DNA of 64,000 bases from Scolanthus callimorphus (Eukaryota; Cnidaria; Anthozoa; Actiniaria; Edwardsiidae): positions 11,510,501 through 11,574,500 of the forward strand of contig CM066916.1 of NCBI GenBank assembly GCA_033964015.1. Reading direction: 5' to 3'. Made by a program: the position numbers and the translations under genes. The notes under the pieces were generated by a model, which saw nothing but the letters and a program-made list of their open reading frames with translations, did not search any database and was not told the DNA's origin. Below are positions 3,224 to 64,000 of the stretch, piece by piece; position 1 is the stretch's first letter; each line of letters starts with the position of its first letter.

Positions 3224-4711
3224 ATGGCGGATAGACGTGTTTCTGTAGCTCCTGCAACAAATCGTTGTAAGTCACCTAAAATAGTATCTGGCCTACGCAG
3301 AACCGCTTCTCTATCGAATCTTGGGGATGTAGTATCAACAAGTACTAGCAATTTGGCCGATGTAATTGTAATATCAGAGGAATCTACAAAAAGTTCCAGT
3401 GCTCAAGAACCTTTCTCGACACGTGAAGAACCAACGGTCATTCTCAAGAGAGCCCTAGGACGTGATCTGGAATCGCTGAACAAGGTCGATCTTAAAGCTG
3501 AATTAGTGAAGAGAAAACTATTGACATCTGGAGTAAAATCTGCTCTGGCCGAAAGACTGAAGTCTCATATTCTGGAAAACGAGAGTGACAATAACAATGG
3601 CGTTTCCCGCCAAAATCTAAAAGGCAACGGATCTCATGCCCCAACATCAGAGGCTTATGAATTAGTAGACGACCACCACTCAGGCTGCCTTAGCTATGAC
3701 CACTTTCGTGAATTTTCCGAACAAATAAAGCAGGACTTGGTAAGCCTCAAAGAAGCGGTCTATAACAACAGACAAGATTCTGACGCAGTCTATAACAACA
3801 ACAGAGATTCCGAACAAGAACTGCAAGAGTTGCGTGAGCAGAACAGACTGATGCGGAATCGCGCGTTGGAAATGGAGGAGAAATTTATTGAATTGAAGGA
3901 GGAGAGGGATAGTCTCAAACTTGTTGTGTCGCTTTTGGGCAAAGATTTGTACCAAAGTACAAGGAACATTTCAAATGCAAATAATATCTCTTCTACCGTC
4001 ACGGATCAAGGACTCATTTCAAAGCCTCCTACCGTCACGGATAATGGGCGCGTTGCAAAGCCTAATGATCCCATTGAATCTGAATCCCAATCATGGCAAT
4101 CGGTAAACAAAAGAGCCAACAGGAAAGCCAACAGAAAACCTGACAGTATTAGTACTCGCAATCACAAAGCAGCAAGTAAAGAAAGTAAAGAACCTTCGGA
4201 GACTACAACTTCTGCCGATAAATTTACCACTCTACTTATCGGCGACTCGATGGTTCAAAATCTTCATGGCAGGAAAATCGGCCAGGAGGTCGGGCATCGT
4301 GTGGTAGTAAGAGCTATTTCTGGAGCGACAACGAAGGCTATGAAGGACTACATCAAACCAAACCTAGAGCTACAACCACAGGAGGTAGTCTTGCACGTAG
4401 GGACAAATAATTTGAGAACAAATTCGCCCCAAGAAGTCGCAGATGGAATTGTAGATCTTGGTAGACAAGTGGAGGGGTCATCCGAAGCTCAAGTGGTTAT
4501 CTCATCTCTAGTAACACGACGAGACCAGTTTCAACGACAAGGTTACGGAGGTCAACAAGTTATTGAAGAGATACTGCAGACAAAATGAATGGAAACTTAT
4601 TGAACATAATAACATTAATGAGAAGGGATTGAATAAAGGTGGACTCCATCTTAACTTTGAAGGTAACAAACGTTTCTTCAATAATTTCTGTAAGAGTTTA
4701 GATTCGCCTTG
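3224..4711 (+). CDS. LINE ORF1 protein: SAP domain, coiled coil, SGNH/GDSL esterase (frameshifted near 4,540)
   Basis: The first frame (3,224-4,588) gives 454 residues. Residues about 85-117 form a SAP-like helix-turn-helix (L-N-K-V-D-L-K-A-E-L onward), a nucleic-acid-binding motif. Residues about 185-245 are a charged coiled coil. From residue about 333 an SGNH hydrolase begins: L-L-I-G-D-S-M-V (block I, Ser nucleophile) and L-H-V-G-T-N-N-L (block III). Near 4,540 the frame shifts by one base. In the shifted frame homologous coding continues to a stop at 4,711 and supplies the G-L-H-L-N motif with the expected catalytic His. Esterase ORF1 proteins are known from CR1-type LINEs; their role is thought to be RNA binding and particle assembly. 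The domain reading is sure; the frameshift could be mutation or sequencing error. Confidence 0.85.
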
Positions 4712-4727
4712 AATTTCTGATTATTCT

Positions 4728-7667
4728 ATGAATGCAGTGCCCATTGAGGAGGGAGGTGATAAGGAATTGCTGGGTTCTTTACATCAAAATTGCGATGAAC
4801 CAGCAGAATGTCAAATGTTGAAATCAAATGAATCCTTAGCTTTGCCTCCGAGAAGGGGCTTGAAATTAGCCTCACTTAATATTAATGGTTTAGAAAGCCA
4901 CCTAGATGAGCTAAATATCTATCTTGCTGGAAATGATATTGACATTCTTGCAATCAATGAAACAAAACTAAACAATCTAGACAAAAATGAAGTTGTAATG
5001 ATCCCGGGTTACGAAATTGTTAGACGGGATAGAACCACTGACAAGGGTGGAGGTATTTGCTTCTATGTTAAGCAACACATTAATTTTCTTGTGCGGGAAG
5101 ACCTTAAAATGGAAAATATAGAAAATCTCTGCATAGAAATTCGTAAACCCCGCGCAAAACCGTTTATCGTTGTGACATGGTATCGGCCACCTAATTCCCT
5201 AGTAGAAGTTTTCAGACCATTTGAAACTCTACTGAGTAAACTTGATTCCATGGATACTGAGTATTTTATACTCGGAGATTTGAACTGTAATATGGACGCT
5301 CCCGGTGACAACGATACACGTAACTTAACGAGTATAACTGATGTGTATGGTCTCCAACAACTCATCAAGGAACCTACTAGAATTACTGAAAAATCTGCAA
5401 CTTTGATTGATTTAATTTTCACTAACTGCCCGGATAAAATTGTGTGCTCTGGTGTCCGCCATATTGGCATCAGTGACCATAGTATAGTTTTCGCATACAG
5501 AAAATTATCTATAAATGGCTTTGATAAGGGTCATACTAGCATAACTTATAGAAATTTTCGAAATTTTAATCGCGACAATTTTCGTCGAGACGTTGAAACC
5601 CAAAATTGGGATTCTCTAAATAACCTTAGGTCTGACCCAGACCGCATGTGGCTCGCGTGGAAGGAGACTTTTTCTGCCATTGTCAATAAACATGCTCCAC
5701 TGAGAACCTCGCGTGTCCGTTCGCGTAGTTCTCCGTGGATCACGTCAGAGCTAAAGGATATTATGCATAATAGAGATATTTTGAAAATTAGGGCGATTAG
5801 AACAAAAGACCCAGATGATTGGGCACAATTCAAAACACAAAGAAACAAAGTAAACAAAGAAATTAAGTTAGCCAAGCAACTATATTATCAAAACACCTTA
5901 AACAAGTACCAGGGTGATTCAAAGAAAACGTGGCAGACAATAAATGAAATAACTTCCAGGAAATCTGGTAGAACGTCTGTGAAAGAACTTAAAGTGAATG
6001 GGCAGTCAATAACAAACCCAATTGAATTGGCAGACGAATTCAATAACCACTTTGCCACCATTGGCCCAAAACTTGCGAGTGATATCCCTGCGCAAAGTAA
6101 AAATAGCCATTTAGACTTTCTTACTGGCACAAACAAAAGGTTTCAGTTCTGCCAAGTCACTTCAAATCATGTTCTCTCACTATTAAACAAACTAAATAAG
6201 TCAAAGGCCACTGGCCTTGACAAGATATCAGCTAGACTCATTCGTGAGTGCGCTGATCTTATTTGCACTTCACTCTGTAATATATTCAACCAGTCTCTCA
6301 GTCTCGGTATATTCCCTGACGACTGGAAAAGTGCCCGGGTAACACCATTATTCAAGCAAGGAAATCGTGATGACATGAACAATTATCGCCCAATATCAGT
6401 GGTCTCAGTTATAGCCAAGGTCTTTGAAAGGATAGTTTATGACCAAATATATGCCTATTTGATTGAAAATGACATAATTTGTAAATACCAATCAGGTTTT
6501 CGCAGTCTCCATTCGACCGTCACGGCTCTTCTTGAGGCCACAGATAGTTGGGCGTATAACATTGACAAAGGAAAAGTAAACGCTGTTGTTTTCCTAGATT
6601 TGAAAAAAGCGTTCGATACTGTTAATCACGATGTCCTTCTATCAAAACTAGACAATTATGGCATACAAGATATTGCCCATAACTGGTTCAAGTCGTATTT
6701 AGACAAACGCACACAAAAATGTTCCATTAATGGCTCACTCTCTCAAACCTGCCTATTAAGCTGTGGAGTTCCACAGGGTACAATTTTAGGGCCATTATTA
6801 TTTTTACTGTACATTAATGACTTGCCAAACTGTTTGGATAATTGTCAACCACGAATGTATGCTGACGACACTCATTTGACGTATGCGGGTTCCTGTGCCG
6901 ACAATATTCAATCATGCCTAAACAAAGACTTGGCAAATGTCAACAATTGGCTAATAGCAAACAAACTAACTCTAAATGCGACTAAAACCGAGTTTATGTT
7001 GATTGGGTCAAGGCAGAGGCTATGCACGTTTACAAATCTTCCCCAGCCAGAGATAAATGGCGCGCAAATTGATCTAGTGACAAAAGCAAAATCACTAGGA
7101 GTGGTTATCGATGAGAATCTCAATTGGTGCGAACATATAGATAAATTAACCAAGAAAATTGCATCTGGTATTGGGGCAATCAAACGAGTGAGGCACCTTG
7201 TTCCTCAGACGACTATGCATAATATTTTTCGTGCGCTTGTACAGCCACACTTTGATTACTGCAATGTCGTCTGGGGAAAGTGTGGTGTTACACTCCATGA
7301 TAAACTACAAAAGCTTCAAAATAGAGCAGCTCGTGTCTTGACCCACTCAAGCTATGATGCCAGTGCTAGCGAACTTTTTGAATATTTGGAATGGAAAAAT
7401 CTAAGCTCCCAACAACAGATTGCGCGAGCAACAATGGTTTATAAATGTTTGCATGGACTGGCACCTGGCTATCTTTCCAGCAAATTTACGACCCGAGAAT
7501 CGATATATTCCCTAAGAGACTCGGACAACAAAGTCAACGTTCCACTACCGCGAACCAATTATTATAAAAACAGCTTCAGCTATAGCGGTGCTATCACATG
7601 GAACAGTCTTCCTAGCGAAACAAGACAAGCCGAGTCTCTTAGGAAATTTAAATCATGTATTAAATAG
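4728..7667 (+). CDS. LINE ORF2: AP-like endonuclease and reverse transcriptase
   Basis: An intact 979-residue ORF. The N-terminus (about 45-255) is an apurinic-like endonuclease: L-N-I-N-G-L, the metal-binding Glu in I-N-E-T-K-L, G-D-L-N-C-N near 183 and S-D-H-S near 249. The RT follows: N-Y-R-P-I-S-V near 550, F-L-D-L-K-K-A-F-D near 620, G-V-P-Q-G-T-I-L-G-P near 683 and the Y-A-D-D box near 711. The C-terminal thumb ends in a W-N-S-L-P motif typical of CR1/L2 elements. The protein nicks target DNA and primes reverse transcription of its own RNA there. It begins 16 bases after the shifted ORF1 frame ends, so downstream re-initiation is plausible. An intact ORF2 plus a clean TSD suggest recent activity. 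Confidence 0.95.
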   Translation: MNAVPIEEGGDKELLGSLHQNCDEPAECQMLKSNESLALPPRRGLKLASLNINGLESHLDELNIYLAGNDIDILAINETKLNNLDKNEVVMIPGYEIVRRDRTTDKGGGICFYVKQHINFLVREDLKMENIENLCIEIRKPRAKPFIVVTWYRPPNSLVEVFRPFETLLSKLDSMDTEYFILGDLNCNMDAPGDNDTRNLTSITDVYGLQQLIKEPTRITEKSATLIDLIFTNCPDKIVCSGVRHIGISDHSIVFAYRKLSINGFDKGHTSITYRNFRNFNRDNFRRDVETQNWDSLNNLRSDPDRMWLAWKETFSAIVNKHAPLRTSRVRSRSSPWITSELKDIMHNRDILKIRAIRTKDPDDWAQFKTQRNKVNKEIKLAKQLYYQNTLNKYQGDSKKTWQTINEITSRKSGRTSVKELKVNGQSITNPIELADEFNNHFATIGPKLASDIPAQSKNSHLDFLTGTNKRFQFCQVTSNHVLSLLNKLNKSKATGLDKISARLIRECADLICTSLCNIFNQSLSLGIFPDDWKSARVTPLFKQGNRDDMNNYRPISVVSVIAKVFERIVYDQIYAYLIENDIICKYQSGFRSLHSTVTALLEATDSWAYNIDKGKVNAVVFLDLKKAFDTVNHDVLLSKLDNYGIQDIAHNWFKSYLDKRTQKCSINGSLSQTCLLSCGVPQGTILGPLLFLLYINDLPNCLDNCQPRMYADDTHLTYAGSCADNIQSCLNKDLANVNNWLIANKLTLNATKTEFMLIGSRQRLCTFTNLPQPEINGAQIDLVTKAKSLGVVIDENLNWCEHIDKLTKKIASGIGAIKRVRHLVPQTTMHNIFRALVQPHFDYCNVVWGKCGVTLHDKLQKLQNRAARVLTHSSYDASASELFEYLEWKNLSSQQQIARATMVYKCLHGLAPGYLSSKFTTRESIYSLRDSDNKVNVPLPRTNYYKNSFSYSGAITWNSLPSETRQAESLRKFKSCIK

Positions 7668-34208: not shown

Positions 34209-36621
34209 ATGTGGTTGATAAGAGCGGTAGCGGTGAGTCTGATTGCTAACAATATTTAATAATTATTGGATGTGGTTAAGCATGATAGCGGAGCTCCTGC
34301 GCGGGCCGAAGGCCCGCGCAAGCGGAGCACCATACCTAAGGAAAAAACGTATAGTATACTATCAAGTTGATTTTTGAACGTCACGGGCATTATGGATCAT
34401 TTTGATGACGTCATTGATGACGTAAGGGCATGTGACCTTCGTGTAGAGTTCCTCTTATGGTCTTTGAAAGTTTGTCCAAGTTTGGCTTCTATAGAAGCTA
34501 CCCTTCGGGATTTTTTCTTTATTTTTCTGGTATTAAACCTATAGCGTACGCCGTCCGTCCATCCGTCCGTCCGTGTACACATGGGAACCCTGTGGTATGC
34601 AAAGAAAAAATTATATCTCCTCAAGGGAACATGCTAAGACAACCATACTTGGGATATTTTGTCTATGCCACAAGGGGGGTGCTGTAACACGGACACGTGA
34701 TGTGACATCATCGATGACGTCATCAGTGATTGAAAAATTAATATCTCGTGAAGGGAAGACTCTAAAACAACCAAACTTTGGTAGTGTAGTCTAGGTCACC
34801 AGGTGAACGAAATGAAGTGGTCACGTGATATGACGTCATCGATGACGTCATCAGAGATTGAAAAATTAATAACTCGTGAAGGGAAAACTCTAAAACAACC
34901 AAACATGGGTAGTGTAGTCTAGGTCACTTAGATGAGCGAAATGAAGTGGTCAAGTGATGTGACGTCATCAATGACGTCATCTATGCTTGAAAAATCAAAT
35001 CTCGTGAAGGGAAGACTCTAAAACAACCAAACTTGGGTAGTGTAGTCTAGGCCACCAGATGAGCGAAATGAGGTGGCCACGTGATATGACGTCATCGATG
35101 ACGTCATCTATGCTTGAAAAATCAATATCTCGTGAAGGGAAGACTCTAAGACAACCAAACTTGGGTAGTGTAGTCTAGACCACCAGATGAGCGAAATGAG
35201 GTGGTCACGTGATATGACGTCATCGATGACGTCATCTATGCTTGAAATCAATATCTCGTGAAGGGAAGACTCTAAGACAACCAACCTTGGGTAGTGTAGT
35301 CTAGGCCACCAGATGAGCGAAACGAGGTGGTCACGTGATATGACGCCATCGATGACGTCATATATGTTTGAAAAATTAATATCTCGTGAAGGGAAGACTC
35401 GAAAACAACCAAACATTGGTAGTGTAGTCTAGGTCACTAGATGAGTGAAATGAAGTGGTCAGGTGATATGACGTCATCGATGACGTCATCAATGCATGAA
35501 AAAATAATATCTCGTGAAGGTAAGACTCACATGGGAATCCCTTTCATTCACACAGAAAATTTTATAACCAGGAGCTCCGCTTTTAGCCAGTGGCTAAATC
35601 TATATATTAGTGACATTTGTCGACGTTGAGGTTTGCTGCCTAGAAAACGCAGGGAGCGTTCATTTTTAAAGTACGACATCAATTGTTTGATATGAATATG
35701 GCTATAACATCAACTCGTCCTATTTTTCTCTTCCGTTTACAGGTTACCGGTGTCTGTTATGGGATGGTCTTGCTGTGTATGGTTGCCAAGGTAACAAATA
35801 TTAACCTCGGCATACCGCCCAGTCAATGCACAGACTTTGTGATGGACAACAAGCTGAAAAAAGACCTACCTCCTCTGCTCATGCAAAAAAAAATAAACAA
35901 AAGCATGGTTATTTGTGTCAAAAAAAGCAAGGAGTCGTTGATAAGCCAGTTAAAAGATGTCGGAGGGTATAATCCGGATTACATCGCAACAGAGCCAGAC
36001 GAGGTGAAGGATTTCATAGACCCGGCAAAGTTTATCTACTCGACATCCCGCCTTCCGCTCCGTCGTCAGGTTCCCAAAAAGCCAACGAAGACCCCGAAGA
36101 CCATCCCTCTATTTCTTAGATACATGCGTCTTGTTTCCATTCGAAACGGCGTTAGAAGGTCAAACGACTTCAAACGTTTTAAAAGAGTAGAACCCGTGCC
36201 ATTCGGAGTACAAAAGGATAGTTGTGTAAAAGGAGGAGAACCCGTCACATCGTACCCAGACCAAGTCCACATGTGTCACTCGTGTCACTATATCAGAGAG
36301 CAAGGAAATAACAAGTTCCCACCTTACCTGAACGAACGAGTCTGTACAAATATCCTCCTTAAAAAACATAATGACGTACCATACAACTCCGATGAGGTAA
36401 ACGAACGTGAGGGGCAGTGCTGGCATAAATCGGGGATGTGCGTTCAGAAGGAAATTGCGATGAAAGGACTGGTTTATGTGGGCAACAAGGAAGAGCAAGT
36501 TCAGGGTCAAACTATTTATAGGGACCAGTACGAAGAGGACAACAGTCTTAGTATACGCACCTGCTGTGAATGTCAGTTTTGGGAGGACAAAGGAAAGTTT
36601 TTGAACCCTTTTCCACCATAG
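34209..36621 (+). CDS. Cytokine-like cystine-knot proprotein, paralogue A (two exons)
   Basis: Exon 1 coding part is 34,209-34,232 (M-W-L-I-R-A-V-A), donor GCG|GTGAGT; the intron is 34,233-35,742; exon 2 is 35,743-36,621 after ...CCGTTTACAG. The 300-residue product starts with a convincing signal peptide that spans the splice junction (C-Y-G-M-V-L-L-C-M-V-A). A Lys-rich prodomain with G-G-Y-N-P-D-Y follows, then R-F-K-R (36,175-36,186), a furin-type site. The mature part is about 144 residues with C-x2-C, F-P-P-Y-L-N-E-R-V-C, C-W-x5-C and a terminal T-C-C-E-C, resembling IL-17/Trunk-type cystine knots. I infer a secreted, processed signalling ligand. No family name is certain. Paralogues B and C share every landmark. 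Frames upstream of the acceptor inside the intron are not coding. Confidence 0.8.
34283..35608. mobile_element. Transposon-like insertion in the intron of paralogue A
   Basis: It begins with a GGAGCTCCTGCGCGGGCC hairpin (GCGCGGGCC/GGCCCGCGC) near 34,290 and ends with CAGGAGCTCCGCTTTTAGCC, whose inverse lies at 24,683-24,708. It carries the CRE minisatellite and a CCGTCCGTCCATCC run near 34,552. Paralogue B's intron lacks it, so it arrived after, or was lost since, the duplication. Confidence 0.65.
34702..35535. repeat. Minisatellite of about 128 bp with paired CRE palindromes
   Basis: Seven units start at about 34,702, 34,831, 34,960, 35,087, 35,215, 35,341 and 35,469. Each holds TGACGTCATCGATGACGTCA or a close variant, two TGACGTCA palindromes 12 bp apart. 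By my reading 12 of 14 palindromes are perfect; 34,702 (TGACATCA) and 35,341 (TGACGCCA) are changed. The rest of the unit is ATCTCGTGAAGGGAAGACTC and GTAGTGTAGTCTAGG. Confidence 0.93.
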
Positions 36622-55984: not shown

Positions 55985-57050
55985 TGGATCCATAGAGAGG
56001 TATCAGCATATTTCTGCAAACTCAAAGGAAACTGCGGAATTCACGGTGGCGACGGATTCATTTATGCTAATATGAAAGAATAATGGGATTCATAGAATCC
56101 GTCTAATCCTGTATTTCCGTCATTTCCGCTAAACACTGATTATATTTTGTGTCAGGGAATGACCACCCCTCCCTACATAAATTTGTGACGGTTTAATCTA
56201 GATCATTATATTTCTGTAAAACTCAAAGGAAACTGCGGATTTCACGGTGGTGACGGATTCATCTATGCTAATATGAAGGAATAATCGAATTCATAGAATC
56301 CGTCTAATCCTCCATTTCCGTCATTTCCGCTAAACACTGAATTATATTCTGTGCAAGGGAATGACCACCCCTCCCTACGTAAATTTGAAACGGATCCATC
56401 TAGACGGACCAATATATTTCTAACTCAAAGGAAACTGCGGATTTCACGGTGGTGACGGATTCATCTATGGTATTTTGGATATCAATCATCTTACAATAAT
56501 TAATAATACTGAAAATAATTGTAATTGTTAGTAATAAACATACAATTATCATAAATAGTGTTTATATAATTATCAATAATATTAATTATTATTTTTAGAT
56601 TAGCATTAAGGAATCCGTCACCACCGTGAATTCCGCAGTTTCCTTTGAGTTCACAGAAATGTATTGATCTAGATTGAACCGTCACAAATTTATGTAGGGA
56701 GGGGTAGTCATTCCCCTACACAAAATATAATTCAGTATTCATCGGAAATGACGGAAATGGAGGATTAGACGGATTCTATGATCAAATTACCATAGATGCA
56801 TCCGTCACCACCGTGAAATCCGCAGTTTCCTTTGAGTTTACAGAAATATAATGATCTAGATTAAACCGTCACAAATTTATGTAGGGAGGGGTGGTCATTC
56901 CCTGACACAAAATATAATTCAGTGTTTAGCGGAAATGACGGAAATGGAGGATTAGACGGATTCTATGAATTCGATTATTCCTTCATATTAGCATAGATGA
57001 ATCCGTGACCACCTTGAAATCCGCAGTTTCCTTTGAGTTTACAGAAATAT
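55985..57050. mobile_element. Large foldback element of about 200-bp repeats
   Basis: CTCAAAGGAAACTGCGGA occurs at 56,021, 56,222 and 56,424, and its inverse at about 56,634, 56,821 and 57,022. Each arm is therefore about 2.5 units of a repeat that also has GGAATGACCACCCCTCCCTA and CGTCATTTCCG. An AT-rich centre (56,480-56,600) separates the arms. No coding. It lies between the SF3-like gene and the virus-like block. Confidence 0.9.
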
Positions 57051-57175
57051 TTTGGTCCGTCTAGACGGATCCGTATAGGTTGTGTTGTGCTTCTGGCATC
57101 AAACACAATCCGTGATTCCACCATCTTGATTTTTACTATTGATAGCCCGGATGGTCCAGTAACACACACAAACAA

Positions 57176-57489
57176 TTGCGTGACATGTCACCCTGGAGAG
57201 GGGTAGTTTGCACGCCGGAAGTTCCTAACCACCTATTTCAGTGTTGCTTTAAGGAACTAACGGTCCTTTTTGAAGTGTTCCTATTAAGAGGAACCAAACG
57301 TTTAAAAAAAACTATTATTCTACTGCGCAAAGATTTCGATTTGCCCGAAAATCTTGACCAGAGGCTGGAAACATGCCTGTTCGATTTAGGAAAGTGTATC
57401 TTGAAGGGACAATTTGCTTCAAGTGCTTTCAAAACCGATTCATAAAAGGGGGAACCAATATTTTGGGAAACGATCACTAGGATATTCTA
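57176..57489. other. Boundary zone of the virus-like block
   Basis: Open frames occur on both strands (plus 57,176-57,445; minus 57,477-57,238) with no recognisable family. GC content drops to the right of here. I see no terminal inverted repeat that would define the element's edge. Confidence 0.35.
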
Positions 57490-58221
57490 AAAATATATCA
57501 CCTAAGCCATGGTTTCGACCTCCTGTAAATCTAAAATCTGGATAGTGGATAAACCAAATTCATAGCACAGTCTTTGGAATACTACTTATTATAGGTGGTA
57601 TTTGTTTGATCAAATACCGTATCATCAGGTAATGGACAACCCATCTCATATAATATTCTTCTAATTGTGAAGTAGACATGGAATTTTATAAAACTATATA
57701 TCACAGGAGGGTAAGATTTAGCTTCATACAGACTAACCCCACATCCCGACGTTGCACAAAACAAGCGAAATTCAACTGTTGCGGCCAGTAATTGTAATCA
57801 GGACTTTGTAACCATCTTCTTGACTGTTTAGCAGAAGTGAATTTTATAGTGGTTTCTTTGAAAATATCCCGCATATCAGTGGTAAACTTCTTTATTGAGC
57901 TTATATAGATATCGAGATTTGTTAATAAATTTGAAATATCCGATCCAGCTAAATTAAAATCAATTGCAGGAATTGGATAAGATTTATTCGTTAACTGTAA
58001 ACTATCAGGAAACGATTTTTAATACCAAGGGATGCATCTAATCTAATCTTCCAGTCGCTTGGTATATCAGACATCCACGTTTGTCCTGTTAAATCATCAT
58101 AACTCATAACTGTTAGTCTTTTATACTTCCAGTATATATATCCACCATAGTCATCAGAAACAAAATGAAACTTTGTTAAATCAGCTCTAGGATATCTCTT
58201 TTTGAATTCGTCTAATAACAT
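57490..58221 (-). pseudogene. Capsid-like protein of the virus-like element, in pieces
   Basis: It starts at the ATG at 58,221 behind TATATTATATATATATG and is readable in at least four pieces in different frames. The first (58,221-57,991) has D-D-Y-G-G-Y-I-Y-W-K; a middle piece begins near 57,995 (P-A-I-D-F-N-L-A-G); the third (57,764-57,582) has C-A-T-S-G-C-G-V-S and F-H-V-Y-F-T-I-R-R-I-L-Y; a last one (to about 57,490) has F-T-G-G-R-N-H-G-L-G-D-I-F. From memory, proteins with these motifs recur beside packaging ATPases in virus-like elements of invertebrate genomes, so I suspect a virion structural protein; this was not searched. It is not functional as it stands. Confidence 0.5.
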
Positions 58222-58317
58222 ATATATATAATATACATATCAGTAGTTTATATCTTTTTCCTTTGTATATCGGAATTCATATCCACTCATTATATGGTGT
58301 TCGGTCAAAAGATATTT

Positions 58318-58893
58318 TTAGCGCACGTTCTTTGAAATTTCTTCTAGCATCTCTTTTCGAATCTGTGTGCGGAGGTCTGATATATTGGGTCCTTCTTTTT
58401 TTTCATCATTCATGTATTTCACTCTAATATCCTTTTTCATACTATGGTATTTTGTTGCCTCGTTTATGATTAGTGTAAACTCTTCATCAGATATCTTATT
58501 ATCAGAGAGAGCTTTTGAAATGATACCTTCCAGTGTGTTTACTTTTGCCCTAGCTAGTTGTGATGTTTTTTCATGCTTAGATATCTTTTTCGATAATTTT
58601 ACGCCAGCCGTTGTAGAAATAACTCCGAACAAAGCGCCAATTCCACCTATTGGACCTCCAACAACAGCTCCAAAGCCTGTGAGTGACAGAGCCAACCCAG
58701 TGCCTGATAGCAAAACAGATGTTCCACCTGTTGACCAAACAACTATTTTTCTCAATCTACTATACTTTTTCTGCATATTCTCATAATGCTTGATTTCATT
58801 TTCAAGGTTTTGCAATACCTCACATGATTTTTGGAGTCTAAAATTGTCTCCATTCTCTGTGGGTAATTGTGGATAAAGTTCGTTGTATTCCAT
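58318..58893 (-). CDS. 191-residue membrane protein of the virus-like element, intact
   Basis: The ATG at 58,893 follows TTTTAATATATTAT. The N-terminus (about 1-50) is helical and charged. Residues about 55-100 are hydrophobic and Gly-rich (G-G-T-S-V-L-L-S-G-T-G, G-A-V-V-G-G-P-I-G-G-I-G-A-L-F-G), probably two membrane-spanning or membrane-active segments. The rest is helical, with Lys/Glu-rich stretches and a D-N-K-I-S-D-E-E-F motif near 130. Gly-rich hairpins of this kind occur in virion-associated membrane proteins, but I do not recognise the family. It is the only downstream gene of the block with an uninterrupted frame. Confidence 0.75.
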   Translation of the reverse strand: MEYNELYPQLPTENGDNFRLQKSCEVLQNLENEIKHYENMQKKYSRLRKIVVWSTGGTSVLLSGTGLALSLTGFGAVVGGPIGGIGALFGVISTTAGVKLSKKISKHEKTSQLARAKVNTLEGIISKALSDNKISDEEFTLIINEATKYHSMKKDIRVKYMNDEKKEGPNISDLRTQIRKEMLEEISKNVR

Positions 58894-58901
58894 ATAATAT
58901 A

Positions 58902-59545
58902 TTAAAAGTGTGTTACTTTTAAATTGATTATAATCAGTTCATTTTTAAAATCAGGCTTTCGACCTTTGATATCAAATAGTTTTATTGTAAAATAATTTAA
59001 CACAGTGTTGACAGAAACAGGAATGCTAGCATAGTCTTTGGATGGTATAACTGCTAATAGTGTACTTATTTTTAGTTTTATCTCTGATCCCTGATTATTT
59101 GTATTTGTGTACGATTTATGTCTATCTAGAATATCACAGAATAACATCAGGGGCTTATCAGGTATCCACCGTATTGGGTATAACTTACTTGGTAATATTT
59201 TTTCAGGAACACCTAACTTTTTGCTAGTTGATCAAATAACAAGATATTAAAGAAAATTCTTTCCATGGCTATCTATAATAATTCCAAACTTATTACCTGT
59301 CAGACCTTGAACAAAGGCCTGCTGTAATGTTAACAGGGTATAATCACCTACTGGGATAGTTTGTAATACCTCCTTTTCATTATTTTCTAATTTTTTTTGT
59401 AAACATATTGATCTTCACTAAATCGTACCCAAGCTGTGGGGCCATAATAGCTCAAAAGTTGTATATCCTTCACGTTTGATAGAGGAGGATCGAGATATAC
59501 CCTAGTCTCTGGTGATCTCATCGCTATTGTTAAGATTGTTGTCAT
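58902..59545 (-). pseudogene. Putative structural protein of the virus-like element, in three pieces
   Basis: It starts at the ATG at 59,545 after TCATATG. The first piece (to 59,387) has R-V-Y-L-D-P-P-L-S-N-V-K and I-Q-L-L-S-Y-Y, ending in an eight-A run where the frame breaks. The second (about 59,385-59,245) has Q-T-I-P-V-G-D-Y-T-L-L. Two in-frame stops follow. The third (about 59,235-58,902) has C-D-I-L-D, then K-L-F-D-I-K-G-R and I-I-I-N-L. The alternating beta-strand pattern suggests a jelly-roll-type capsid or spike protein, but that is an inference from strand periodicity only. Confidence 0.45.
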
Positions 59546-59590
59546 ATGATACATATTATCGTTTACCTTTTATACGGTTTACCATATATG

Positions 59591-60481
59591 CTACGATGCC
59601 AAGAATAAGACCCAAGCATTTTTAGCTAGGAAACCAACCACTTCACCCGCTGATTTGAAAATAAAACTAGCTATAGTACTGATCATACTAGGTAGTAGTT
59701 CTCCAAGCTTTTTACCAATAGCTTTCAAACCGTTAGAAACACCCTTGGCAACAGTTGATAACCCCTTTGATAGGTTAGAGATGATTACTCCGATAGTAGT
59801 TCCCCCGGCTAATACTACCGCTGTCACCGTAAAGCCATACTTCTTGAATATCCGTTTAACTCTATTCTTGAGAGACATACGCTCCTCTATGGCTTCATGT
59901 TCTTCCTCTAATTCTGATATTTGGCTTTCTTTTTCATCAATATCCTCCTGAATATGTTCAATCTCATGCTCTTGTTTTTGAATTTCCTCATGGATTGTAG
60001 GAGACTCTTTTTCACCTTTTAACATATTTATTTCATTTTTCAATATTTGTAACTTTTTTCTTTCAGCTTCTTGTTTTTTAGCTAATTGTAGAATTTCTCT
60101 TTTACTTTCTTCTTGTTTTTGTTCGTTTTCATCAACCATCTGTTCTATCGTTTTTCCTAGTTTAGCAACGAGCGTTTTCGGTAGCTTGGTGTTTACATCT
60201 CCATCTTTGTTGAATAAATAATTCCACTTCATATTTCCTTTTTTAAGAGTAACAATAACTCTACCATCTTTTTCATCTCTACTATATAAAAGTTCATCAC
60301 GATTAGCAATAGGAAATATCTCTTGTATCTTTTCCCATGCTTCATTTTCCATTGTAATCATATTTTGATCTTTCCCTAGAGCATCTACGATCGTCTTACC
60401 TATATTTCTATTTAATTTTTTATCGATAAATAGGAGGTGCCATATTGAGCCAGTTTTTGCTTTAACTCGTATAAAACCCAT
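59591..60481 (-). CDS. Coiled-coil membrane protein of the virus-like element (C-terminus frameshifted)
   Basis: 296 residues from the ATG at 60,481. Residues 1-110 form a globular part with two related segments (I-Q-E-I-F-P-I-A-N-R-D-E). Residues about 115-205 are a long Glu/Lys coiled coil. A transmembrane segment (V-T-A-V-V-L-A-G-G-T-T-I-G-V-I-I) lies near 218-235, and an amphipathic stretch runs to the end. After N-A-W-V the shifted frame would continue as a further hydrophobic segment ending in a basic tail, so a one-base loss near 59,615 probably truncated it. Possible roles are membrane or virion anchoring; no family recognised. Confidence 0.7.
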   Translation of the reverse strand: MGFIRVKAKTGSIWHLLFIDKKLNRNIGKTIVDALGKDQNMITMENEAWEKIQEIFPIANRDELLYSRDEKDGRVIVTLKKGNMKWNYLFNKDGDVNTKLPKTLVAKLGKTIEQMVDENEQKQEESKREILQLAKKQEAERKKLQILKNEINMLKGEKESPTIHEEIQKQEHEIEHIQEDIDEKESQISELEEEHEAIEERMSLKNRVKRIFKKYGFTVTAVVLAGGTTIGVIISNLSKGLSTVAKGVSNGLKAIGKKLGELLPSMISTIASFIFKSAGEVVGFLAKNAWVLFLAS

Positions 60482-60482
60482 T

Positions 60483-60746
60483 TCATCTATTTTTGATAAA
60501 ATTTACTTGTATCAGCATTTGGAAATATGTCCTTAATAATTTGATCAATATCTTCTTTTCACTTACTCTTTCTAAAATAAGTTGGTTATAATCAGTAAAT
60601 GAGGTTTCTTCCATTCCACCTTCAGCCACCCAATCTGTGGATGTTGATGGTCTAAGTAACTCATGCATGGGTATTTCCTCACCACCTGTATCATGATCAT
60701 CACCATGATTTATAAGAGGATCTGTATCTTTATAGCCTATATCCAT
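60483..60746 (-). pseudogene. Short acidic protein of the virus-like element (frameshifted)
   Basis: The ATG at 60,746 follows AATCATATAAT. The N-terminus is acidic (D-P-L-I-N-H-G-D-D-H-D-T-G-G-E-E). Near the end an A-run breaks the frame (V-S-E-K-K instead of V-S-E-K-E-D), and the shifted frame shows D-I-F-P-N-A-D, echoing a motif in the next gene. The frame ends 2 bp before the next ATG. Function unknown. Confidence 0.55.
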
Positions 60747-60806
60747 ATTATATGATTTATATTATAGGTATATTTTTATATCCTGTGAAATATTTTTTAT
60801 GATTCC

Positions 60807-61601
60807 CTAGTGTTGTTCTTGTTTGAATTTCCGCTTACAGAACTTGCATCTAATACGGACATCACACATGTAGTCGTTTATCTCCTTGATAAGTAAATCA
60901 TAATCGTTGGAAACTATACACTTATAACCACTCTCCTCATATTGTTCTAAGAGTTCTGTTTGCTCATCAGATATATAACCATTACATTGTGGAGTCTTAA
61001 ATTCGATACACATGCCAGAGTAATATTTGTGACAATTTTGTATTATAAGATCTGGTTGTCCCTTCATATATCCCTTTCGATAGGATGCTATGCGTTTTGC
61101 TGACGTATCTTGATTCTCTCCTAGTCCTGCTGTTATAATAACGCTTAGATAAAACCGTCTGATGAATCCAACTACTTTGGTATGCAGGTCGTATTCATCT
61201 TCTATTTTGAATGTTAGCGTCTTAGGGTTGTTAAACCTCCTATAGTATCCATACTTTCTGATAGATGGTAGTACCTCCTCAACGACCCCATCCTGAAATT
61301 TCTCAGCAATTGGTAGTTTAGATCTCATAATTAATCGATATAATCCACTTTCATTGATAAAAATAGTGTGTTGTGGAATATCTTTTAGGGGTCCCCATTT
61401 TAGGGATCCCTTAATGATCTCACTTATCATCTTTTTATTCTTGTCTGGAACATGTTGTAACACAGCATTCGCTGGTTTTTCATACCCAAGAGCTAATGCA
61501 ATATCTTTCCCTTTGAAGTAGATATTTTGCTTGCTATCAATATATGAACCAATAGCTAGATTTAGGTGTTTATTTTCATAAATCTTTTCAGTTAGTGTCA
61601 T
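60807..61601 (-). CDS. Bro-N domain fused to a VRR-NUC-like PD-(D/E)xK nuclease
   Basis: The chosen start is the ATG at 61,601 after TATATTCAATATATAATA; an upstream ATG at 61,745 would add an unlikely hydrophobic stretch that overlaps the next gene. 264 residues. Residues about 5-110 match Bro-N: Y-F-K-G-K-D-I-A-L-A-L-G-Y, H-V-P, F-I-N-E-S-G-L-Y-R-L-I and E-E-V-L-P-S-I-R-K-Y-G-Y-Y. Residues about 125-245 look like a VRR-NUC nuclease: G-Q-P-D-L (catalytic Asp), I-E-F-K-T-P (E-x-K), then a Q-x3-L motif. A C-terminal C-x5-C-x2-C may bind zinc. Bro-N binds DNA and VRR-NUC proteins cleave branched DNA, so a replication or resolution role is plausible (inference). The reading frame is complete. Confidence 0.85.
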   Translation of the reverse strand: MTLTEKIYENKHLNLAIGSYIDSKQNIYFKGKDIALALGYEKPANAVLQHVPDKNKKMISEIIKGSLKWGPLKDIPQHTIFINESGLYRLIMRSKLPIAEKFQDGVVEEVLPSIRKYGYYRRFNNPKTLTFKIEDEYDLHTKVVGFIRRFYLSVIITAGLGENQDTSAKRIASYRKGYMKGQPDLIIQNCHKYYSGMCIEFKTPQCNGYISDEQTELLEQYEESGYKCIVSNDYDLLIKEINDYMCDVRIRCKFCKRKFKQEQH

Positions 61602-61677
61602 TATTATATATTGAATATATAATAATGTATCCTTAAGCCTTTTTTCATATCTGGATGTAAATTCTTTAGACCTCATC

Positions 61678-62094
61678 TCACTTACAAAATTTAGAAGCAA
61701 CATAGCCGACAGCAAGCATACCACCACCAACATAAGCCATTTCATACTTTTTCTGAGTATTTGATGGTTTATAATAATTACTAAACTGTGGCATTTGTAA
61801 ATGGATCTTTTGATTATGAGCTTCGTTATACAATTTTAGTGCCTCATCTGTAGCTCTCATGTTATGACTTGCGATTTGCTTATTCTTGTAACGTTCTGTT
61901 TGTCAATCTATGAGTTTTTGTCTATTTTCTTCAAAAATTGATAATCATGTTGATACTTTTCAACAGCTTTATTATGCCGAATGCGTTCTTCATCCATGTT
62001 GTTATCCAGTAAGATATCTAGCTAAATAATTCCCACCGATGAAGCTTGTAGCATTTAACACCGCTCCTCCTATCATCAATGCAATAGTCGTCAT
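61678..62094 (-). pseudogene. Small membrane protein of the virus-like element, broken
   Basis: The ATG at 62,094 follows ATATTATAATATAA. The first piece (to 62,002) is hydrophobic and Gly-rich (M-I-G-G-A-V-L-N-A). A second (61,997 to about 61,908) is charged and helical (R-H-N-K-A-V-E-K). A third (61,860-61,678) has A-L-K-L-Y-N-E-A and ends in a hydrophobic segment (V-G-G-G-M-L-A-V-G-Y). At least two frame changes and one TGA separate them. From memory, a protein of this layout recurs in related elements, which supports one original gene. Role unknown. Confidence 0.5.
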
Positions 62095-62121
62095 TTATAT
62101 TATAATATATATATTACACTT

Positions 62122-62345
62122 TTATACCGAATTTGGTATAATCTTCTGATCCTCTAGATATTTCTTGAGATACATGCTAGAACCAAGGACTAAGACCCAT
62201 TTTCCGTAGCTACTTATATTTGAGCTTGGATCGTTAATAAATGATTCCTCATAGCCTTTTTACTAACCCATCCGACTCCTGATACCAGACCAATAAGCAC
62301 GGCTGCATCCATAAACGTTTTAACCAATTTGTTTTCAGTTGACAT
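62122..62345 (-). pseudogene. Small two-segment membrane protein of the virus-like element (frameshifted)
   Basis: It starts at the ATG at 62,345 after ATTATTAT. A hydrophobic segment (A-A-V-L-I-G-L-V-S-G-V-G-W) is followed by S-K-K-A, where an A-run (about 62,259-62,263) breaks the frame. The shifted frame continues with W-V-L-V-L-G-S-S-M-Y, a second hydrophobic segment, to a stop at 62,122. About 73 residues in total. Function unknown; small membrane proteins are typical of virion-forming elements. Confidence 0.5.
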
Positions 62346-62380
62346 ATAATAATATCTATACATATCGTTTTATATCATTT

Positions 62381-62746
62381 TTATTCCATACCTACAAGGA
62401 TTTTAGATGCTTTCACCATAGGTTTTTCATCTACAGGAGGTGGTGATTTTATTTCGATTTTATCCTTATCATTACCCTGTTTTCTCCATCGATAGTATAA
62501 ATCTAGAGCTGTAAGGCTAATTCCCACTATTGATAATACAGTTGTAAGTGAGATTTCTGGCATCCATGTTTTCTCTTCAGATATTGTACCGTCTGTTTGT
62601 TTCTTCATAGCATCCTTAGCCTTTTTATGGTATTCTGCTAAACGTTTACCAGCCAATACTTTTTTCGGATCCTTCTGCTTAGTATCTTTTACAACTTCTG
62701 GTTCCTTAGTTATTTGTTCAATATTTTCTGTATTTTCTGTTGACAT
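62381..62746 (-). CDS. 121-residue Lys-rich single-pass membrane protein of the virus-like element
   Basis: The ATG at 62,746 is preceded by ACTTAATATAT. Residues 1-60 are charged and Lys-rich; residues about 66-88 are a transmembrane segment (I-S-L-T-T-V-L-S-I-V-G-I-S-L-T); the tail is Lys- and Pro-rich. The frame is intact. It lies between a small membrane protein and the 175-residue protein, all on one strand with gaps under 200 bp. Unrecognised family. Confidence 0.65.
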   Translation of the reverse strand: MSTENTENIEQITKEPEVVKDTKQKDPKKVLAGKRLAEYHKKAKDAMKKQTDGTISEEKTWMPEISLTTVLSIVGISLTALDLYYRWRKQGNDKDKIEIKSPPPVDEKPMVKASKILVGME

Positions 62747-62796
62747 ATATATTAAGTATTCTTAATATATATTTATATCAATTAGGATATTTCAGG

Positions 62797-62940
62797 ACTG
62801 CTTAACAGATGCTTAACAGATGCTTAACAGTTGCTCAAGACTGCTTAAGAGGTTGCTTAACAGATGCTTAACAGTTGCTCAAGACTGCTTAAGAGGTTGC
62901 TCAAGACTGCTCAAGAGTTTCAACAGGTTGCTCTAGAGTA
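62797..62940. repeat. Minisatellite of 11-12-bp units at the 3' end of a gene
   Basis: Alternating GCTTAACAGAT, GCTTAACAGTT, GCTCAAGACT and GCTTAAGAGGTT units run about 12 times, including two copies of a higher-order block of about 57 bp. The array extends into the last codons of the 175-residue protein (L-E-Q-P-V-E-T-L-E-Q-S). Confidence 0.9.
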
Positions 62941-63428
62941 TTATTACTAAATTTGATATGTTTACCGATTTGTATCAAAGCACTTGCAAGAGCTACCATC
63001 CGACCGCCTTTAAGTACACAATAACCAGCATATTCGGAAAGCTCTTTTCTAAGTAAATCATCATTTTGAAGATCGTTGCATAATGCTTTTTTATCATCTA
63101 TAGGACATACATAGGAAATCGCTTGTGAAACTCCTTGTAATGCTGTATCAACCAAGCCATTAGTAACCTTATTACCCATCACAACCTGATACCGATTATA
63201 ATATTTTTCAACATCCTTGATTGATAGCCTCTTAACATCACCAAGTGACATATCAACACCTGTATATTCACGCGTCGTTTGTAGTACAGCTAAAATACAA
63301 AGTGATTCCCGTTTTTCTTCAATCTCCTTTGTATCTAAAACCTTTTTAACAGTCTTCTTTTTCTGTGGCTTAGTAGGCTCTTCCACATTATTCATATTAT
63401 TCATATATTCTCCAACAATATCTGTCAT
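62901..63428 (-). CDS. 175-residue protein of the virus-like element, intact
   Basis: I chose the ATG at 63,428 (TATAATAAATATA just before it); an ATG at 63,446 overlaps the ATPase stop as ATGA and would add six residues. The N-terminus is Lys-rich. The body is helical (S-L-G-D-V-K-R-L-S, V-E-K-Y-Y-N-R-Y-Q) with a weakly hydrophobic helix near 135-155 (G-G-R-M-V-A-L-A-S-A-L). The C-terminus runs into a minisatellite. The gene sits immediately after the ATPase. Family not recognised. Confidence 0.7.
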   Translation of the reverse strand: MTDIVGEYMNNMNNVEEPTKPQKKKTVKKVLDTKEIEEKRESLCILAVLQTTREYTGVDMSLGDVKRLSIKDVEKYYNRYQVVMGNKVTNGLVDTALQGVSQAISYVCPIDDKKALCNDLQNDDLLRKELSEYAGYCVLKGGRMVALASALIQIGKHIKFSNNTLEQPVETLEQS

Positions 63429-63442
63429 TATATTTATTATAA

Positions 63443-64000
63443 TCATATATTATTTAAATCATTTGGATTTGGAATTTCAATATAACAATTATAAGGATGT
63501 CTCATAGAAATACATATGTGTGAATAATTTTCTGATTTTAATAATTTCATATATCGTTTCCTATCTTCAATATCAAGATCACCTCCATAATCATCGAATA
63601 ATGCCTTCATGCTTACAATAGATGGATTATAGAACGATATCACACAAGCAACATTATCCCTGAATGCTTTTGCAATGGACGTAATCTGTTGAGTTAAAAC
63701 CCATACTGATAGGCCTTCATGCCTACCGCTGAAGGCTAAATTTATAAACTTATTCGATTTTTGTTTAAGTTCTTTTGAAAAGGCGCAATCATCTAGTATT
63801 ATCAACGTATTTGTATCAGTAAATAACTCCTTACAATAAGATAAAATTTCATTAATTTCATCAATTGAATCCACATCTGGTGAAATAACAATAAATCTCC
63901 CATCTCCTTGTGCAAATCCATGATATGTTTTATTATTTGCATAAGTTGGACATATAAGCACTATATATTCGAATTTGTACCTAAATGGACCTCTAAGCTG
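63443..64000 (-). CDS. FtsK/HerA-type (A32-like) DNA-packaging ATPase, 5' end outside the window
   Basis: The frame is open from the right edge, so the N-terminus with Walker A is missing from this window. About 185 residues are visible. Y-I-V-L-I-C-P-T-Y is an early strand; L-I-I-L-D-D-C is Walker B; S-G-R-H-E-G-L-S-V-W-V-L-T-Q-Q carries the conserved Arg and the Gln sensor motif of A32-like packaging ATPases; D-N-V-A-C-V-I-S-F-Y follows. Such ATPases pump viral DNA into capsids and are hallmarks of poxvirus-like viruses, virophages, Polintons and Polinton-like viruses. The frame is clean and ends by overlapping the next gene's possible start. Confidence in the family is high; the exact lineage cannot be told from this part. 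Confidence 0.9.
   Translation of the reverse strand, partial: QLRGPFRYKFEYIVLICPTYANNKTYHGFAQGDGRFIVISPDVDSIDEINEILSYCKELFTDTNTLIILDDCAFSKELKQKSNKFINLAFSGRHEGLSVWVLTQQITSIAKAFRDNVACVISFYNPSIVSMKALFDDYGGDLDIEDRKRYMKLLKSENYSHICISMRHPYNCYIEIPNPNDLNNI

What the first reader, a model, noticed from the sequence alone, without database searches (positions are those of the whole stretch)
57490..64000. Virus-like DNA element with packaging ATPase in an apparent coral genome
The sequence shows a one-strand, intronless, AT-rich gene block containing a Walker B/Arg/Gln signature of A32-like packaging ATPases, a Bro-N nuclease, coiled-coil and membrane proteins and capsid-like fragments. Packaging ATPases of this type are known from Polintons/Mavericks, Polinton-like viruses and virophages. 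Several other genes have no family I recognise, so the gene set may define a poorly described lineage.
Basis: partly seen in the sequence, partly recalled or inferred. Interest (0 to 1): 0.86.

Follow-up and report, generated by a model that had tools for sequence, protein, structure and literature searches.

The report
Coral Polinton with swappable, hairpin-bearing nuclease
The stretch is a decayed copy of a known kind of virus-like jumping element (a Polinton) in a probably coral genome, and one of its genes, a DNA-binding nuclease, swaps its middle segment between copies and hides a DNA hairpin exactly there, a hairpin that also turns up at the same place in part of the related genes of bacteria and their viruses.

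Summary
In detail: a one-strand AT-rich gene block with an A32-type ATPase and a Bro-N nuclease. Extending 10 kb rightwards adds a PolB-like gene, an rve integrase, broken capsid-like pieces and an inverted repeat shared with the left ends of other copies. It is a decayed, left-truncated Maverick/Polinton; its left part has 40 scored matches in a 597 Mb, probably anthozoan, genome. That part is a known kind.

The unexpected part is the Bro-N gene: Bro-N + VRR-NUC nuclease + C2H2 finger (truncated in this copy). Over 31 usable copies the middle of Bro-N (V) has dS about 0.73 against 0.25-0.29 in its flanks, and its distances do not follow theirs: V segments are exchanged. In 34 of 40 copies the spacer just upstream holds a piece of a V segment; in all 25 typed cases the best match is another type than the active one. 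V carries a GC-rich palindrome of changing sequence (17 of 28 distinct V; synonymous reshuffles 0.18). A palindrome at the same place is over-represented in bacterial (16 of 80 against 0.8) and IMG/VR (8 of 68 against 0.5) Bro-N genes. My ten paper searches listed no report of it. Best guess: a nuclease of exchangeable specificity. That Bro-N recognises its own palindrome is inference.

The parts
57479..64000 (-). Polinton copy, left-truncated at 57,479; continues right to about L009:7183 (about 13.7 kb in all; the right end was not checked against other copies)
   Evidence: 40 matches of the left part, 9 of 9 followed copies continue beyond 57,479; inverted repeat at L009:6824-7076, tandem repeats L009:7115-7183
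57479..58221 (-). Broken and truncated remains of a conserved 508-aa gene of unknown function (one open frame in L149:1565-3091)
   Evidence: frames compared by eye; no Pfam family
58318..58893 (-). 191-aa membrane-like protein, conserved among copies (188 aa in L149)
   Evidence: no family over cut-off
58902..59147 (-). C-terminal piece of a conserved gene (L149:492-908; its N-terminal part in L016:3964-4299), possibly a minor capsid protein (recalled resemblance only)
   Evidence: no Pfam family
59591..60746 (-). Coiled-coil plus membrane protein, split here in two frames (59591-60481 and 60483-60746); one frame in L008:2243-3274
60807..61601 (-). Bro-N + VRR-NUC nuclease; the C-terminal C2H2 finger of the relatives is truncated here
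61254..61481 (-). V segment of Bro-N: hypervariable, exchanged between copies
61387..61411 (-). Palindrome inside V (one mismatch in this copy)
61648..61672 (-). Remnant of a V segment of another type in the spacer upstream of the gene (25 nt, 100% to L042 and L034)
61678..61860 (-). C-terminal part of the upstream gene (137 aa in L016)
62381..62746 (-). 121-aa membrane-like protein, conserved among copies
62901..63446 (-). 181-aa protein next to the ATPase, conserved among copies
63443..64000 (-). A32-type packaging ATPase; N-terminus with Walker A in L009:1-84

Best explanation
A decayed Maverick/Polinton of a coral-like animal. One of its genes encodes a protein with a Bro-N domain (DNA-binding by family knowledge), a VRR-NUC (PD-(D/E)XK) nuclease fold and, in the relatives, a zinc finger. 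SHOWN: the segment of Bro-N between the first helices and the 'INESGLY' stretch exists in 11 allele groups (31 loci) whose distances do not follow those of the flanks, as expected from exchange by recombination, and most copies keep a same-strand piece of a different, presumably earlier, allele just upstream. SHOWN: most alleles of the exchanged segment carry a palindrome whose arms differ between alleles but pair within each. INFERRED: the V segment sets DNA-target choice, so exchange changes what the nuclease binds. INFERRED, weaker: the palindrome is the site where the Bro-N protein binds its own gene, or where an extruded cruciform is cut, which would make the segment a break and exchange hot spot carrying reader and target together. 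The likely use is conflict with rival elements or viruses, or control of the element's own replication.
For: Polinton: integrase, PolB-like gene, A32 ATPase, TIR, 40 left-part matches. Nuclease: A3 profile against VRR-NUC 4qbl E 2.7e-7; model against six 4qbl chains E 5e-5 to 3e-4, TM 0.68-0.73 by target. Exchange: pS 0.466 in V (31 loci) against 0.213 before (31) and 0.242 after it (11); Mantel r -0.00 and 0.05, p 0.47 and 0.24, 16 loci; L022, L028 and L037 share upstream remnants but have different V segments. Remnants: 34 of 40 spacers, best match same-strand in 34 of 34, another type in 25 of 25 typed; controls 1 of 40 and 1 of 40. Palindrome: 29 of 45 in V, 0 of 45 in each of seven other, partly overlapping, windows; 17 of 28 against 0.18, max 2; fold z -2.78 against +0.40, +0.59 and -1.11; outer arms of 23 picked hairpins 0.93 complementary within, 0.37 across. 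Elsewhere: 16 of 80 against 0.81, 8 of 68 against 0.48.
Against: The two bacterial Bro-N genes with a palindrome that I read in full (L074, L110) show no VRR-NUC-like block by eye (their Pfam scan failed), so the palindrome seems to belong to Bro-N, and self-cutting is only one reading. In bacteria and IMG/VR contigs most Bro-N genes lack a strong palindrome (64 of 80; 60 of 68), and upstream remnants are rare (2 of 154). Coral alleles of the KYK-LRxxK group and L038 have only weak palindromes. The dN/dS ratio is below 1 in V too (0.42), so there is no sign of positive selection at the protein level. No binding, cutting or transcription data. Pfam gives no DNA-polymerase domain to the PolB-like gene and nothing to the capsid-like pieces.
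Confidence: 0.72

Rival explanations
1. The palindrome is an RNA element (a terminator or translation brake) in the Bro-N message, and remnants are kept upstream because their hairpin ends the preceding transcript. Exchange is incidental. (Can hold together with V exchange.)
For: The core folds strongly as RNA; 10 upstream stretches keep a hairpin of 7 or more pairs in a remnant.
Against: Several remnants lack a perfect hairpin (for example L006, L017, L019, L026, L034, WIN); GC-rich hairpins are almost absent from the rest of the loci (4 outside V and the 300 nt upstream in 190 kb, one of these in an extra Bro-N piece of L027), so this is not a general gene-end signal of the element.
Confidence: 0.15
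2. The V segment is a tolerant loop in which quasi-palindromes arise by template switching during replication; no function, and copies recombine like any repeat family.
For: Arms of either orientation (G-rich or C-rich left arm) and changing loops; the loop is poorly modelled (pLDDT 68 for residues 61-70).
Against: Spacers and other tolerant stretches of the same loci do not show such palindromes apart from V remnants; the same place is hit in bacteria and their viruses.
Confidence: 0.2
3. Ordinary ectopic gene conversion between repeats plus old V alleles inherited from several invading Polinton strains; no dedicated mechanism.
For: Many copies, some 99.5% alike on different contigs, give ample partners; flanks of V are more alike than V.
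Against: Does not explain why upstream remnants sit in one orientation, in one spacer, and of another type in 25 of 25, nor the palindrome.
Confidence: 0.3
4. Bacterial contamination or a plasmid piece rather than an animal element.
For: One PolB relative is named as a bacterial MAG (P0246).
Against: 33 Mb contig, 40 left-part matches on many contigs, five anthozoan-named PolB relatives.
Confidence: 0.01

Closest known systems
Maverick/Polinton elements of animals (integrase, PolB, A32-type ATPase, capsid genes, TIRs)
   Same: Integrase, PolB-like gene, ATPase, capsid-like pieces, TIR, about 13.7 kb for this truncated copy
   Different: Integrase lies internally on the other strand; the PolB-like family carries an Endonuclease VII domain (21.5 bits, under the cut-off, in this copy); no protease found in the ORFs scanned; carries Bro-N + VRR-NUC
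OmPLV, endogenous Polinton-like virus of Oxyrrhis marina (PMC12721341; passages and section 19 read)
   Same: Bro-N fused to VRR-NUC in a Polinton-like element, which that paper calls not previously described
   Different: OmPLV has a tyrosine recombinase and a helicase-PolB fusion, and Bro-N-VRR-NUC head to head with the ATPase; the passages that I read mention no V exchange, upstream remnants or palindrome; here an rve integrase and same-strand order
VRR-NUC Holliday-junction nucleases (PMC4103454; abstract and passages read)
   Same: PD-(D/E)XK fold, best PDB match 4qbl; standalone dimers cut four-way junctions there
   Different: Here fused to Bro-N and, in relatives, a zinc finger
Odn, the origin-directed nuclease of phage ICP1 (PMC8263062; passages read)
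   Same: A nuclease whose DNA-binding specificity mimics that of a rival element's replication protein and aims the cut
   Different: A phage protein of another nuclease and DNA-binding family (GIY-YIG and RepA_N); works alike at most, not a relative
Phage Bro-N antirepressors
   Same: Bro-N domain, and a palindrome at the same place in a minority of them
   Different: No VRR-NUC seen in the two genes read; hardly any upstream remnants

Membership tests
Maverick/Polinton | rve-type integrase | tested here: met
   L009:2114-3016, rve E 4e-7 (30.6 bits, a little under the cut-off of 32.6); IS481 transposase model E 1e-12, also under its cut-off
Maverick/Polinton | Protein-primed family B polymerase | tested here: inconclusive
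   60-64% identity to five anthozoan-named proteins, 65% to one named DNA polymerase; no polymerase Pfam hit; motifs seen by eye only (recalled)
Maverick/Polinton | A32-type packaging ATPase | tested here: met
   Pox_A32 43 bits, cut-off 22.8; the 120 listed of 942 relatives carry PF04665
Maverick/Polinton | Double-jelly-roll capsid gene | tested here: inconclusive
   Pieces L009:94-300, 910-1335, 1331-1852, 1828-2148 resemble Polinton capsid by recall; two of these pieces and the longer L006 piece gave no match over cut-off in Pfam, the L006 piece none in PDB sequences or NCBIfam
Maverick/Polinton | Adenain-like protease | tested here: inconclusive
   None among the ORFs scanned with Pfam
Maverick/Polinton | Terminal inverted repeats | tested here: met
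   Left ends of 7 of 9 other copies match L009:6824-7076 inverted, 81-89% over 140-252 bp, plus short repeats to 7117; left TIR lost in this copy; right ends of other copies not seen
Maverick/Polinton | 6-bp target-site duplication | not tested
   This copy has no left end; the right-end search did not complete
Bro-N + VRR-NUC fusion (OmPLV type) | Both domains in one frame | tested here: met
   Copy L016: Bro-N 93.2 and VRR_NUC 24.0 bits, both over cut-off; structure and profile matches to 4qbl
Known anti-phage defence proteins | Match in PADLOC-DB | tested here: not met
   No match for the Bro-N nuclease at E 0.01

The most novel reading that the evidence does not exclude
Bro-N genes from bacterial viruses to animal Polintons carry, inside the stretch that encodes a variable loop of the domain, an allele-specific palindrome that is the site the encoded protein itself binds. 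Reader and target are inherited as one cassette; binding or cutting there drives cassette exchange. In Polintons the fusion to a junction-cutting nuclease turned this into a self-diversifying nuclease of exchangeable specificity, and the pieces left upstream are a record of earlier alleles.
Probability: 0.22. Interest if true: 0.92.

Novelty: new variant of a known kind. Interest (0 to 1): 0.7.

Why it matters
Bro-N is a widespread DNA-binding domain of phages and large DNA viruses (recalled), and how its variants arise and what they read is unclear to me from the papers seen. A palindrome tied to its most variable segment, seen in three data sets, gives a concrete, testable handle. If V exchange changes target choice, animal Polintons own a switchable nuclease comparable in logic to the specificity-subunit shuffling of restriction enzymes (recalled analogy), which would bear on how such elements compete with each other and with viruses.

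Tried and rejected
Contamination and plasmid origin: rejected (33 Mb contig, 40 left-part matches, anthozoan-named PolB relatives). TIR search between the window and L009 failed because this copy lacks its left end; solved with other copies. The hairpin as a general terminator of the element: not supported. The hairpin as a by-product of the protein sequence: rejected by synonymous reshuffles. The conserved A-rich hairpin centre: probably set by the protein (K/Q/E then I/T codons, read by eye), not by DNA. Self-cutting by the fused nuclease as the reason for the palindrome in general: weakened by its presence in two genes without a VRR-NUC-like block. Searches of IMG/VR with the 181-aa gene, the ATPase and the Bro-N nuclease found no Polinton relative (two distant matches in the nuclease part, L012 and L143, the latter not examined). 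In a small phage sample (10 fetched of 40 listed of 670 records), 8 of 10 Bro-N loci had no GC-rich hairpin and 2 had some, not mapped to the loop. Papers: searches; none of the listings shows a palindrome in Bro-N genes or V exchange in Polintons, but only listings were seen except for passages of PMC12721341 (and its section 19), PMC4103454 and PMC8263062.

Limits: 45 of 49 own-genome loci were usable (4 dropped: L047, L049, L050, L052); a further 20 Bro-N places were asked for and never fetched. V statistics rest on 31 loci with an open frame through V, 28 distinct. Near-identical copies (for example L015/L016, L031/L044, L008/L013) were not collapsed. Allele types were assigned by hand from the groups, and only the best match of each remnant was typed; the chance of 25 of 25 was not computed. 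Loci were the best 80 of 530 and of 581, so chosen by similarity; the 80 include L063, which is probably not bacterial. Duplicates were collapsed only; A4 was built partly from loci that carry the palindrome. Windows outside the loop gave 0 to 3 palindromes of score 20 or more.


Full report
WHERE IT LIES. The window is G000:C6:11,510,501-11,574,500 of a 597 Mb assembly in 302 contigs; contig C6 has 33.4 Mb. Six of the 120 listed PolB relatives carry an organism name, five of them anthozoans and one a bacterial MAG, so 'anthozoan, probably coral' is an inference.

THE OBSERVATION. Searches confirm the one-strand, AT-rich gene block, the A32-type ATPase (Pox_A32 43 bits over a cut-off of 22.8 once read across the window edge) and the Bro-N nuclease. 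The next 10 kb (L009) add: capsid-like pieces (L009:94-2148, minus; likeness recalled, no database match) broken by a frame change and by an inserted stretch of about 690 bp with imperfect 27-bp inverted ends (L009:300-326 and 961-987); an rve integrase on the plus strand (L009:2114-3016); and a PolB-like gene (L009:4075-6828 with a frame-shifted continuation 3307-3990). Forty matches to the left part were scored out of 125 candidates, one of them the window itself; the other 39 end at about the same point of the query, window 57,479, and the nine that were followed all carry on beyond it. The left ends of 7 of these 9 copies match L009:6824-7076 in inverted orientation at 81-89% over 140-252 bp, with short repeat matches to 7117: these are the TIRs; 27-bp tandem repeats lie at L009:7115-7183. 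The right-end search did not complete, so the right end is inferred. The copy is a left-truncated, decayed Polinton of about 13.7 kb. Broken here: the left-terminal 508-aa gene, the coiled-coil gene, the capsid-like gene, the PolB-like gene and the zinc finger of the Bro-N nuclease. Copies with open frames exist for several of these genes. Some copies on different contigs are 99.5% alike (for example L015 and L016), so the family has moved or been copied recently.

THE BRO-N GENE. The search gave 2,009 relatives at E 0.001 or better, the best 120 listed. Most of 17 aligned ones begin where our residue 49 lies and show three parts: Bro-N, a PD-(D/E)XK block 'KGQPDLII...CIEFK' and a C-terminal C2H2-like finger. 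In copy L016 both Bro-N (93.2 bits) and VRR_NUC (24.0) exceed Pfam cut-offs; the profile of 50 sequences finds VRR-NUC 4qbl in the PDB at E 2.7e-7, and the AlphaFold model of the window protein (mean pLDDT 82.5, pTM 0.54) matches 4qbl with E 5e-5. [quoted passage not shown] passages and section 19 read). So the fusion itself is not new; its presence in an animal Polinton of another make-up is an extension.

EXCHANGE OF THE V SEGMENT. Of 48 fetched Bro-N loci plus the window copy, 45 could be oriented. Mean pairwise DNA identity is 0.84-0.92 over the first 150 nt, 0.67-0.75 over nt 150-360 (V), and again 0.85-0.87 at 390-480. In 31 loci with an open frame through V, pS is 0.466 in V against 0.213 before it and 0.242 after it (11 sequences for the last); corrected dS about 0.73, 0.25 and 0.29; dN/dS 0.42, 0.29 and 0.11. 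V is thus older than its own flanks, the mark of exchange among old alleles, not of positive selection. V distances do not follow those of the flanks (Mantel on 16 loci with the nuclease frame open: r -0.00 and 0.05); the two flanks do not follow each other either (r -0.14), so recombination is not confined to V. There are 11 allele groups at about 90% protein likeness.

REMNANTS UPSTREAM. In 40 of the 45 loci the spacer between the upstream gene and Bro-N could be cut out; 34 hold a stretch that matches a V segment, the best match in the same orientation in all 34; control stretches of 300 nt inside the upstream gene and downstream of Bro-N give 1 of 40 each. In 25 of the 34 the active allele was typed, and in 25 of 25 the best match of the remnant is another type. 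Three loci (L022, L028, L037) share a spacer with the same two remnants but have different active alleles. L032 and L046 keep an extra 5' part of the gene of about 510 nt. Junctions often fall at short shared words such as ATGAAA and GATC (read by eye). The simplest reading is replacement of the active allele that leaves a scar of an earlier one.

THE PALINDROME. At about nt 216-254 of the gene, inside V, 29 of 45 copies have a perfect inverted repeat with at least 6 pairs and 5 G/C per arm; seven other, partly overlapping, 140-nt windows of the same genes have none in 45. With stems of 7 or more: 23 in V, 11 in the 300 nt upstream (10 of them V remnants), 4 in the rest of 190 kb, one of these in an extra Bro-N piece. 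Among 28 distinct V sequences 17 have it, against a mean of 0.18 and a maximum of 2 in 200 synonymous reshuffles. RNA folding z-scores average -2.78 for V cores (24), +0.40 and +0.59 for two stretches of the nuclease part, -1.11 for the N part. Arms differ between alleles (16 distinct outer arms among 23 strings that I had picked as best hairpins) and are 93% complementary within, 37% across alleles. The KYK-LRxxK group and L038 have weak palindromes only. The window copy has the palindrome with one mismatch.

BEYOND THE CORAL. Among 80 Bro-N loci from bacterial genome records (best 80 of 530; L063 among them) 16 have a palindrome of score 20 or more in the 90 nt around the loop, against 0.81 on average (max 3) in synonymous reshuffles; windows away from the loop have 0 to 3, and random 90-nt windows 112 of 4,800. 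Among 68 distinct IMG/VR Bro-N loci 8 have it, against 0.48 (max 3). So it is a minority trait there. One bacterial MAG contig (L063) carries the same kind of PolB-like gene and a broken Bro-N + nuclease gene, and has the palindrome too; it is probably a Polinton-like stray. Two bacterial genes read in full (L074, L110) show no VRR-NUC-like block by eye. Upstream remnants are rare in bacteria and viruses (2 of 154). Hence the palindrome seems to go with Bro-N, and the remnants with the Polinton.

HOW IT MAY WORK. VRR-NUC proteins that stand alone are dimers that cut four-way junctions (PMC4103454; abstract and passages). A palindrome can extrude as such a junction. The steps from 'exchange' to 'changed target choice' and to 'self-recognition' are inference. 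Odn of phage ICP1 (PMC8263062; passages) shows that a small nuclease that mimics a rival's DNA specificity can serve conflict between mobile elements; it works alike at most.

VERDICT. The element is a new member of a known kind. The V exchange with upstream scars and the palindrome shared by Bro-N genes from bacterial viruses to an animal Polinton were not met in my ten paper searches (listings, three papers opened in part). I file the whole as a new variant of a known kind.

Noticed in passing
L009:300-987: Stretch of about 690 bp with 27-bp imperfect inverted ends interrupts the capsid-like gene; looks like a MITE-type insertion.
   Followed up: no
L009:2114-3016: Integrase lies internally and on the opposite strand; the usual second acidic position reads as Glu in this copy (by eye, motif recalled).
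   Followed up: no
window 62796-62919: 11/22/44-bp tandem repeat (TGCTTAACAGA-like) in the spacer between the 121-aa and 181-aa genes; a related perfect inverted repeat of 22 bp arms occurs in L023.
   Followed up: no
window 55986-57072: Large imperfect palindrome (83.6% over 1.1 kb) with tandem repeats close to the truncated left end of the element.
   Followed up: no
window 34694-35528; L010:4486-4913 and 5650-6339: 128-bp satellite with a CACGTGATATGACGTCATCGATGACGTCATC-like unit shared by distant places.
   Followed up: no
L009:4075-6828: Many relatives of this PolB-like protein carry an Endonuclease VII domain (PF02945); 21.5 bits, under the cut-off, in this copy.
   Followed up: partly
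L063: Bacterial MAG contig with a Polinton-type PolB and a broken Bro-N + nuclease gene, probably a eukaryotic or viral stray in the bin.
   Followed up: partly
L005:1-2268: Bro-N gene reads divergently from a truncated 181-aa gene, a rearranged copy.
   Followed up: no
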